NCBI GenBank assembly: GCA_022616435.1
Contig: JAKEET010000084.1
Span: 43,371-107,370, forward strand
Origin: Gemmataceae bacterium
GTDB lineage: Bacteria > Planctomycetota > Planctomycetia > Gemmatales > Gemmataceae
Reading direction: 5' to 3'
DNA: 64,000 nucleotides
In this document: positions 47,841 through 50,689 of the stretch, piece by piece
How the letters are laid out: every line of letters begins with the position of its first letter
How positions within the stretch are numbered: the first letter of the stretch is position 1
Made by a program: the position numbers and the translations under genes
Notes under the pieces: model-generated
Seen by the model: the letters and a program-made list of their open reading frames with translations, nothing else
The model's database searches: none
What the model was told of the DNA's origin: nothing

Positions 47841-49058
47841 TTACTTCGTCGCCGACCGTTCCGCCTTCTGGATCAGCTGGTCCAGGGCGGCGTCGATTGC
47901 CTCTGCCGCGGGGAGGCCGCCCTGCTCGTAGCCGGCGGAGTTGCCCACCCATTTGTGGCGGATCACGCCCTGGTGATCGATCACGTAGAAGGTCGGCGTG
48001 CTTTGCAAGTTCCACCTGGTGACGATCTCCTCGCCGTTCACGAACGACGGCCACGTCAGCTTGTCCTTGTCCATCACCGCCTTGAGCTCCTTGGCGTCCC
48101 AGCCGTTGACGTTGACGCCGATCAAGGCGAACGGCTTGCCCGAGAGCTTCTTCACGAGCGACCGCTCGTGGGGCCATTGCAGTCGTCAACCGAGTCAGTA
48201 GCGGTTCCAGAAATCGAGCAGCACGACCTTGCCGCGGTAGTCGCTCAGCTTGAAGCGCCGGCCGTCCTGGTCCTGGCCCGCGATGTCCGGCGCCTGCTTG
48301 CCCACCAGCAAATGCCGGAATTCGAACAACTCCGCCTGGGCCCGCGCACCGACCGTGCCGGCGTAGGGGATCTTGGCAGCGCGGTACTTCCCGGCCGCCT
48401 GCTCGAAGAGCGCTTCGATCTCCCGGGCAATCGCGGCGCGATCTTGCCGCTGCAAGGACGCGACGAACGCTTGACCGAACACTTTCACATGCGCTCTTGC
48501 GACCTCCGGCCGTTCCTTGATCTCGTCGAGACGTTGCAGCCGATTGTGGAGGAACTGGCCGAGCGACAGGCAGGCAAGGGCGCGCACGTCTTGGTGAGGG
48601 CTATGTTCCAGGACGGCGCGGAGAAACGCTTCGTGCTCGGAACGGAAGCCGGCGTTGAGCCGCTGGCAGATCGGGCCGATCTTGTCGCTCTGCAGATGGT
48701 CGCGCCGCAGGATGGCCATGGCCCGCATTCCCGGACCGTCGCCCGCCGGAAAGGCGTTGTTGTTCACCATCCAGATTGCCTGGATCAGCGCATCCACCGC
48801 GATGGGGTGTTTCGGGTTCTGCTCGGCCAATGTCAAGAATCGTGCCGCGAGGCCGGGCCGCTGCTTGTCCAGCCGCTCGATGAGTTGCTTGCGCTCCTGA
48901 TCCGACTTGGCGCCCCCGCCGGCGGCCCGCTGGTACTCCTTGACGAGCGCCTTGTATCGCTCTGCCGGCGTGGCGACCGCGTCCTGCAGCCCGGCCGCGC
49001 CGACCGTCAGGGGCAGGCCGAACACCAGCGCCAAGTCGATGGCAACGATCCGGAGCAT
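47841..49058 (-). CDS. TlpA/AhpC-TSA-type secreted thioredoxin with UxxU in place of CxxC (UGA-recoded)
   Basis: Read through two TGA codons this is a 405-residue protein. It has a signal peptide (IVAIDLALVFGLPLTVGAAG), a helical middle of about 230 residues, and a C-terminal redoxin domain. Its start APDIAGQDQDGRRFKLSDYR and GKVVLLDFW lead straight into NRY-U-LG-U-RLQWPHE and then RSLVKKLSGKPFALIGVNVN, with the cis-Pro motif STPTFYVID. In TlpA-like proteins the same stretch reads DFWATWCxxCRxxxPHE. Both TGA codons (288 and 291) fall exactly on the two active-site cysteines, without gaps or frameshift. A gene caller would report two pieces (48195-49058 and 47841-48155). ATG 49058 follows GGAGG. 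Confidence 0.85.
48153..48197 (-). promoter_or_regulatory. Two UGA codons followed by a bacterial SECIS-like hairpin
   Basis: On the minus strand the UGAs are at 48197-48195 and 48188-48186. The hairpin CACGAGC-GGTC-GCTCGTG (48170-48153) has a perfect 7-bp stem and a GGUC loop that starts 22 nt after the second UGA and 31 nt after the first; both distances fall in the 16-37 nt SECIS window, and GGU in the loop matches the E. coli fdhF type. Confidence 0.75.
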
Positions 49059-50593: not shown

Positions 50594-50689
50594 GGCCGGA
50601 AAAGGGGGCCGGCGCCTCCCGCGGACTGCAAACCCGTTGAGGGCCATCGAACAGGGTGGCCCCGCTCGGTTCGACTCCGAGTCCGGCCT
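50594..50689 (+). tRNA. tRNA-Sec-like tRNA with GCA (Cys) anticodon, candidate tRNA-ReC
   Basis: A 96-nt class II cloverleaf. Acceptor GGCCGGA/TCCGGCC (50594-50600 / 50682-50688) is a perfect 7 bp. The D arm GGGGGC-CGGC-GCCTCC (50604-50619) has a 6-bp stem with one G-U and a 4-nt loop, the tRNA-Sec hallmark. The anticodon loop is CTGCAAA (50626-50632, anticodon GCA); its stem has a G-U and one A-C mismatch. The variable arm GGGCCA...TGGCCC (50641-50662) is a perfect 6 bp. The T arm CTCGG-TTCGACT-CCGAG (50665-50681) is perfect. Discriminator T50689 (U73) and GCA are the identity elements of CysRS. CCA is not encoded. It is close to E. coli selC in loop sequences but has Cys identity. The acceptor is 7 bp, not the usual 8. 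Confidence 0.85.

What the first reader, a model, noticed from the sequence alone, without database searches (positions are those of the whole stretch)
47841..49058. A TlpA-like thioredoxin with UxxU: both active-site cysteines are UGA codons
In one uninterrupted frame, a redoxin domain reads LLDFW-NRY-U-LG-U-RLQWPHE, while family members read DFW-x-x-W-C-x-x-C-R-x-x-x-PHE. The two TGA codons replace precisely the two catalytic Cys, with no gap and no frameshift. A random nonsense mutation would not hit both Cys and leave the rest intact. A perfect 7-bp hairpin with a GGUC loop starts 22 and 31 nt after the two UGAs, right for a bacterial SECIS. A di-Sec redox site (or Cys decoded at UGA) is very rare.
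Basis: partly seen in the sequence, partly recalled or inferred. Interest (0 to 1): 0.95.

Follow-up and report, generated by a model that had tools for sequence, protein, structure and literature searches.

The report
Twin-selenocysteine redox protein, one RNA hairpin
A gene in this planctomycete-like genome carries two UGA codons exactly where a thioredoxin-type enzyme has its two active-site cysteines, and both are likely read as the selenium amino acid selenocysteine with the help of one conserved RNA hairpin, which would make an all-selenium active site that database entries of its close relatives leave out.

Summary
Gene 49058..47841 (-) is one frame of 405 codons with TGA at 288 and 291, the two Cys positions of a TlpA/ResA-like redoxin. 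It is no lone accident: 37 stretches (38 matches) in 27 public assemblies of Planctomycetota and Verrucomicrobiota carry the same pair. In 397 genomes of the class, a pattern allowing TGA, TGC or TGT at both positions gave 22 matches, all TGA/TGA. A stem-loop with loop GGUC, 31 and 22 nt after the two UGAs, forms in 38 of 38 non-redundant UxxU genes and 21 of 21 single-Sec relatives but 2 of 16 non-Sec relatives; its Glu, Arg, Ser and Leu codons are frozen. It meets the published bacterial SECIS model for both UGAs. The genome has SelA, SelB and a UCA tRNA-Sec; SelD was not found (assembly 79% complete). In Paludisphaera soli the gene follows selB-selA-selD. The tail after UGA2 is under purifying selection. 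Best reading: an exported di-selenocysteine oxidoreductase whose two UGAs share one SECIS. UxxU redoxins are already listed in reviews; this clade and its shared, frozen SECIS appear new. Selenium itself was not tested.

The parts
47841..49058 (-). UxxU TlpA/ResA-like gene, 405 codons plus TAA, two in-frame TGA
48195..48197 (-). UGA1, codon 288, likely Sec (first Cys position of the redox motif)
   Evidence: TGA in 38 of 38 non-redundant UxxU rows, which were chosen by both TGAs; TGA in 22 of 22 where TGC/TGT were allowed
48186..48188 (-). UGA2, codon 291, likely Sec (second Cys position)
   Evidence: TGA then TGC/TGT in the same context: 0 of 397 genomes
48153..48170 (-). putative bacterial SECIS hairpin, 7-bp stem and loop GGUC (48160-48163), shared by both UGAs
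47844..48185 (-). coding tail after UGA2, 114 codons, rest of the thioredoxin fold
   Evidence: open frame and dN/dS; model
48312..48968 (-). helical N-terminal domain, residues 31-249 of the protein
   Evidence: AlphaFold2 model, mean pLDDT 87.7 for the whole protein
48984..49058 (-). probable signal peptide, about 25 residues (read by eye)
   Evidence: sequence (P0002); no signal-peptide program was run

Best explanation
The gene most likely encodes an exported thioredoxin-fold oxidoreductase in which both UGA codons would be read as selenocysteine, directed by one shared bacterial SECIS hairpin downstream of both. Inferred mechanism: SelB carrying Sec-tRNA binds the GGUC loop while UGA1 is in the A site (loop 31 nt away); the ribosome moves on 9 nt, the hairpin is still ahead of it, and the same hairpin serves UGA2 (loop 22 nt away). 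The product would have Sec-Leu-Gly-Sec at the start of the first thioredoxin helix and would cycle between diselenol and diselenide, reducing or exchanging disulfides in the cell envelope. Shown: the frame, the codon positions, the conserved hairpin, SelA, SelB and tRNA-Sec, the selection after UGA2, the clade. Inferred: Sec at each UGA, one hairpin serving both, diselenide chemistry, export, substrate.
For: TGA at both positions in 22 of 22 matches of a pattern that allowed TGA/TGC/TGT, in 14 of 397 genomes. Hairpin: six inner pairs in 38/38 UxxU, 21/21 UxxC, 2/16 non-Sec homologues; loop GGUC 59/59 against 1/16. GAG, CGG, TCG and CTC each 38/38 although synonymous codons were allowed. A compensatory G-C to C-G change in one UxxC gene, L096. 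The bacterial SECIS model (16-37 nt spacing, G in the first two loop positions; PMC13188914 passage) is met for both UGAs. SelB, SelA and UCA tRNA-Sec in the genome, G73. 11 of 27 redoxin loci of the genome carry TGA, each in the redox motif. In Paludisphaera soli the gene follows selB-selA-selD, with tRNA-Sec between selA and selD. Tail dN/dS median 0.34. Two database proteins end as CxxU forms would (DNA not seen). Thioredoxin fold with both positions at the start of the helix.
Against: SelD is not found in this genome, nor in the 95% complete G040. No selenium, mass-spectrometry or expression data. Folding energy of the hairpin region is ordinary. In the UxxU set the stem hardly varies, so covariation there cannot be tested; the one compensatory change is in a UxxC gene. 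Some close pairs have dN/dS near 1, the window and L107 0.99. 2 of 38 copies are frameshifted; one lies in G054, where SelA was not found.
Confidence: 0.83

Rival explanations
1. Both UGAs are read, but as Cys (or another amino acid) by a suppressor or tRNA-ReC-like tRNA rather than as Sec.
For: Cys is the ancestral residue; a tRNA-Sec-like tRNA of Cys type (anticodon GCA) lies 1.5 kb away at 50594-50688. SelD was not found.
Against: The one UCA tRNA over the RF01852 cut-off is a tRNA-Sec with G73; SelA and SelB are present. The tRNA near the gene has anticodon GCA, which reads UGC/UGU. A SECIS would not be needed for plain suppression.
Confidence: 0.07
2. UGA1 is read as Sec but UGA2 ends translation, or both mostly end it, so that a shorter protein is the main product (Se- or stress-dependent regulation).
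For: Sec insertion in bacteria is inefficient (recalled), and two UGAs multiply the loss. The part before UGA1 is a domain of its own in the model.
Against: Tail open in 36 of 38 with median dN/dS 0.34. Single-Sec relatives need the same hairpin for UGA1 alone. Two apparent CxxU proteins keep only the second site.
Confidence: 0.07
3. Pseudogene or sequencing error.
For: Fragmented assembly, 217 contigs, 79% complete; 2 of 38 copies frameshifted.
Against: Same two TGAs in 27 public assemblies, including the named strain Paludisphaera soli JC670, with coding selection after them.
Confidence: 0.01
4. TGA is a sense codon throughout this genome (altered code).
For: 11 of 27 redoxin loci have in-frame TGA.
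Against: 22 of 35 UxxU genes with a terminal stop in view end in TGA at the usual length; the in-frame TGAs of this genome's redoxins sit in the redox motif only.
Confidence: 0.02

Closest known systems
Prx-like thiol:disulfide oxidoreductase selenoproteins (PF00578, UxxC or UxxU), as listed in tables of PMC9312934 and PMC13188914 (passages)
   Same: Pfam domain PF00578 and a UxxU motif, 1-2 Sec
   Different: Sequence kinship with the reference entry WP_010940744.1 was not tested. Here: helical N-terminal domain, a Planctomycetota/Verrucomicrobiota clade, near-fixed UxxU.
SelL (eukaryotic UxxU selenoprotein)
   Same: Two Sec two residues apart, inserted with a single SECIS (PMC3316567 passage); its diselenide is known to me from the title of Shchedrina 2007 in reference lists
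   Different: Eukaryotic, with a eukaryotic SECIS; here the hairpin lies inside the coding frame. Homology not tested.
UxxU forms of the Prx-like 2 family in the GOS metagenome (PMC2398784, passage)
   Same: Bacterial-type UxxU redoxin
   Different: Described there as weakly similar to pfam04592 (selenoprotein P N-terminal region); not compared here
TlpA / ResA / CcmG thiol-disulfide oxidoreductases
   Same: Fold: ResA chains lead the PDB matches, TM-score by target length 0.85-0.90 for the first two; profile matches ResA and TlpA
   Different: Sec instead of Cys at both sites; an extra N-terminal helical domain; below the NCBIfam cut-offs
UxxC relatives in the same planctomycetes (for example L031 in this genome)
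   Same: Same hairpin at the same distance from UGA1
   Different: Second site is Cys; Trp usually before the first site instead of after the second

Membership tests
bacterial selenoprotein | in-frame UGA where homologues have Cys | tested here: met
bacterial selenoprotein | SECIS hairpin right after the UGA (3-9 nt loop, 4-16 bp, G in first two loop positions, 16-37 nt spacing) | tested here: met
   model from a PMC13188914 passage
bacterial selenoprotein | SelA, SelB and UCA tRNA-Sec in the genome | tested here: met
bacterial selenoprotein | SelD in the genome | tested here: not met
   best hit 62.6 bits, cut-off 125; assembly 79% complete; present over cut-off in 8 of 10 UxxU genomes, this one included among the 10
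bacterial selenoprotein | selenium in the protein | not testable with these tools
   needs mass spectrometry or 75Se labelling
Prx-like thiol:disulfide oxidoreductase, UxxU subgroup | PF00578 domain | tested here: met
   72.1 bits, cut-off 26
Prx-like thiol:disulfide oxidoreductase, UxxU subgroup | UxxU motif | tested here: met
   at codon level
Prx-like thiol:disulfide oxidoreductase, UxxU subgroup | kinship with the reference entry WP_010940744.1 | not tested
   the entry was not fetched
ResA (NCBIfam NF002854) | score over the curated cut-off | tested here: not met
   65.2 bits, cut-off 170
ResA/TlpA fold group | ResA/TlpA-type thioredoxin fold | tested here: met
ResA/TlpA fold group | CxxC | tested here: not met
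   TGA at both positions
SelL | sequence kinship | not tested
   no SelL sequence was compared

The most novel reading that the evidence does not exclude
One bacterial SECIS hairpin drives two successive selenocysteine insertions nine nucleotides apart, making a near-obligate diselenide TlpA-like enzyme; the hairpin has dictated part of the protein (HERSLV) across two phyla, and the second Sec was recruited once, from a UxxC ancestor, by falling within reach of the hairpin that already served the first.
Probability: 0.6. Interest if true: 0.75.

Novelty: new variant of a known kind. Interest (0 to 1): 0.64.

Why it matters
If true, it gives a natural test system for how one in-frame SECIS can recode two close UGAs, with a named strain as carrier (Paludisphaera soli JC670), and for what a diselenide does that a disulfide or a mixed Se-S pair cannot. 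It shows an RNA signal fixing a peptide: UxxU and UxxC genes share HERSLV and nearly all its codons, while non-Sec relatives do not. It also shows an annotation gap: of the 120 best database relatives listed, 118 end just before the first UGA and 2 where the second would be.

Tried and rejected
Lone accident: rejected, same TGAs in other assemblies. Altered genetic code: rejected, 22 of 35 of these genes end in TGA. A second hairpin just after UGA2 (GGGCC/GGCCC, seen in many rows): not general, the window copy lacks it. Conserved neighbourhood: beyond the Paludisphaera Sec cluster nothing convincing; a family that I read by eye as a protein kinase recurs in 5 loci, two of them the same contig. 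Folding energy as evidence: not significant. The window's tRNA-like RNA as a UGA suppressor: its anticodon is GCA. 'Both UGAs strictly obligate': weakened by two apparent CxxU database proteins. UxxC with the WPHERSLV context: 0 of 397 genomes. SECIS of the genome's other TGA genes: simple hairpins were listed, but no control was run, so no claim is made.

Full report
What is there. On the minus strand, 49058..47841 is one frame of 405 codons and a TAA, interrupted only by TGA at codons 288 and 291. Around them it reads LLDFWNRY-U-LG-U-RLQWPHERSLVKKL. Pfam AhpC-TSA matches residues 294-410 of the longer reading P0001 with 72.1 bits (cut-off 26), through both TGAs. The first 25 residues look like a signal peptide (read by eye). 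AlphaFold2 on 32 aligned UxxU sequences, with Cys in place of Sec, gives mean pLDDT 87.7 and pTM 0.84: a helical domain (31-249), then a thioredoxin fold in which positions 288 and 291 open the helix 289-304. The best PDB matches are ResA chains, TM-score by target length 0.85 and 0.90 for the first two; the profile also finds TlpA.

Relatives. Of 149 related genomes 128 have a homologue at E<=1e-10 (its list of matches was cut). With duplicates taken out, 18 distinct loci read UxxU in 10 genomes, the window's included; one search adds an eleventh of the 149, G054. More distant homologues read UxxC, CxxC and singly SxxC, FxxC and SxxS. In 84,980 public species genomes a pattern that fixed both TGAs and the peptide WPHERSLV, but left synonymous codons free, found 37 stretches with 38 matches in 27 assemblies, counted by accession prefix; some are the loci again. 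By record title 4 stretches are Verrucomicrobiota, 2 an unnamed bacterium and 31 planctomycetes, among them Paludisphaera soli JC670. The fair test of the two codons is: TGA, TGC or TGT allowed at both positions, 397 genomes of the class, 22 matches in 14 genomes, each TGA and TGA; none for the reversed pattern. TGA followed by TGC/TGT in that context: 0 of 397. These patterns still require WPHERSLV, so members without it are not counted. In a protein database 1511 relatives were found; the 120 listed cover 56-67% of the query. Of these, 118 end in FWxxx, just before UGA1, and 2 (P0075, P0115) end in FWxxxCLT, as a CxxU form would; one of the 120 is the window's own protein.

The hairpin. CACGAGC-GGUC-GCUCGUG lies in the codons HERSLV. 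Of the 38 matches, 37 have the identical 17 bases and one has CAT for CAC, which keeps a G-U pair. In 38 non-redundant UxxU genes (window added, L123 dropped as a copy of L098), Glu is GAG, Arg CGG, Ser TCG and Leu CTC in 38 of 38; the Pro before uses 4 codons, the Val after 3, the next conserved Leu 5. The six inner pairs form in 38/38 UxxU, 21/21 UxxC and 2/16 non-Sec homologues; the outermost pair forms in 16/38, 18/21 and 4/16; loop GGUC in 59/59 against 1/16. Slid by 1 to 6 bases the partner strand pairs in at most 235 of 354 cells, against 354 in register. The UxxC rows show four G-C to G-U changes, one A-U to G-U and one compensatory G-C to C-G (L096). Against this, the stability of the region is ordinary (z 0.10, 0.11, -0.74). 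The published bacterial SECIS model asks for a 3-9 nt loop, 4-16 bp, a G in the first two loop positions and 16-37 nt spacing (PMC13188914, figure-legend passage). The loop is 31 nt from UGA1 and 22 nt from UGA2, so one hairpin meets it for both.

The machinery. The genome (6.4 Mb, 217 contigs, 79% complete) has SelB (368 bits, cut-off 242), SelA (566 bits, cut-off 268) and a tRNA-Sec with anticodon UCA (72.9 bits, cut-off 47), whose base after the acceptor stem is G. SelD was not found; the best hit (62.6 bits, cut-off 125) lies in a frame that I read as ThiL from memory. In the 10 UxxU genomes searched, SelB is over the cut-off in 10 and SelD in 8; this genome and G040 lack SelD. selA is over its cut-off in 103 of 149 relatives and in 10 of the 11 with a UxxU gene. 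The exception, G054, is 79% complete, and its match has the same 44 bases as the frameshifted L120. In Paludisphaera soli (L146; G107:C68 and the contig of L118 have the same length, 171148) the order on one strand is selB, selA, selD, UxxU gene, with tRNA-Sec on the other strand between selA and selD. Of 27 redoxin-family loci in the window's genome 11 carry in-frame TGA, each in the redox motif.

Selection. Of the 38 non-redundant genes 36 stay open for 86 or more codons after UGA2 (L117 runs off its contig); L098 and L120 meet a stop after 36 and 46 codons and look frameshifted. On the tails of the 36, 471 of 630 pairs had dS<2; median dN/dS 0.34, 86% under 0.5, highest 0.99 (window against L107); mean pN 0.29, mean pS 0.61. 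Of 35 genes with a terminal stop in view 22 end in TGA, so TGA is still a stop in these genomes.

Origin. In a quick tree of 75 rows with the motif columns left out, all 36 UxxU rows are one side of a branch (SH-aLRT 99); the six rows nearest outside are five UxxC and one CxxC. The root is not inferred, and no bootstrap was run; 'UxxU arose once, from UxxC' is the simplest reading.

How it would work. The stem starts 24 nt after UGA1 and 15 nt after UGA2. From the ribosome's footprint (recalled, about 11-12 nt past the A-site codon) the hairpin is intact in both cases, so one SelB-hairpin unit could act twice. The product would be an envelope oxidoreductase with a diselenide.

Known or new. 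Two reviews list 'Prx-like thiol:disulfide oxidoreductase, PF00578, UxxC/UxxU' (PMC9312934 and PMC13188914, passages). A metagenome paper reports UxxU in a Prx-like 2 family (PMC2398784, passage). SelL has two Sec two residues apart served by one SECIS (PMC3316567, passage). Sec machinery in planctomycetes, Gemmata included, is known (PMC4807772, passages). So the motif is known. I saw no account of this clade, or of one bacterial SECIS serving two UGAs, in searches of an open-access library (listings, partly cut) or in the passages. Not seen: most subscription papers, the groundwater study cited in PMC13188914, and PMC12013261.

Noticed in passing
window 50594-50688 (+): tRNA-Sec-like tRNA (RF01852, 50.5 bits, cut-off 47) with anticodon GCA, long variable arm, 6-bp D stem and U after the acceptor stem, so a Cys-type tRNA on a tRNA-Sec-like body. 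6 of 99 genomes match it, own included, 4 of them over most of its length or in the 5' part and one over 26 bases only; ARAGORN calls tRNA-Cys in three of the six loci. Resembles selC* tRNA-Cys (PMC7609411 passages), but the T stem looks like 5 bp.
   Followed up: partly
L034 (G000:C63:69755-70186): A second UxxU redoxin in the same genome, motif UGGU, of another Prx-like type.
   Followed up: no
L021, L023, L030, L031, L032, L038, L040, L042, L043: Nine more redoxin genes of this genome with one in-frame TGA in the redox motif: the genome looks selenoprotein-rich.
   Followed up: partly
P0075, P0115: Database proteins ending FWxxxCLT: apparent CxxU forms cut at the second UGA.
   Followed up: no
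L125, P0014: PQQ-propeller-like domain in front of the UxxU protein in one frame.
   Followed up: no
L087 around base 2905: Copy with SLPS instead of a redox motif that keeps the hairpin, next to a UxxC copy: perhaps decaying.
   Followed up: no
L098/L123 and L120: UxxU copies frameshifted after the hairpin; described only.
   Followed up: partly
L096 (G001:C1:779184-779573) and G001:C1:779675-781012: A UxxC relative with a compensatory stem change lies next to selA, on the opposite strand.
   Followed up: no
L138, L139, L140: SelD of G035, G013 and G029 itself has one in-frame TGA, so it may be a selenoprotein there.
   Followed up: no
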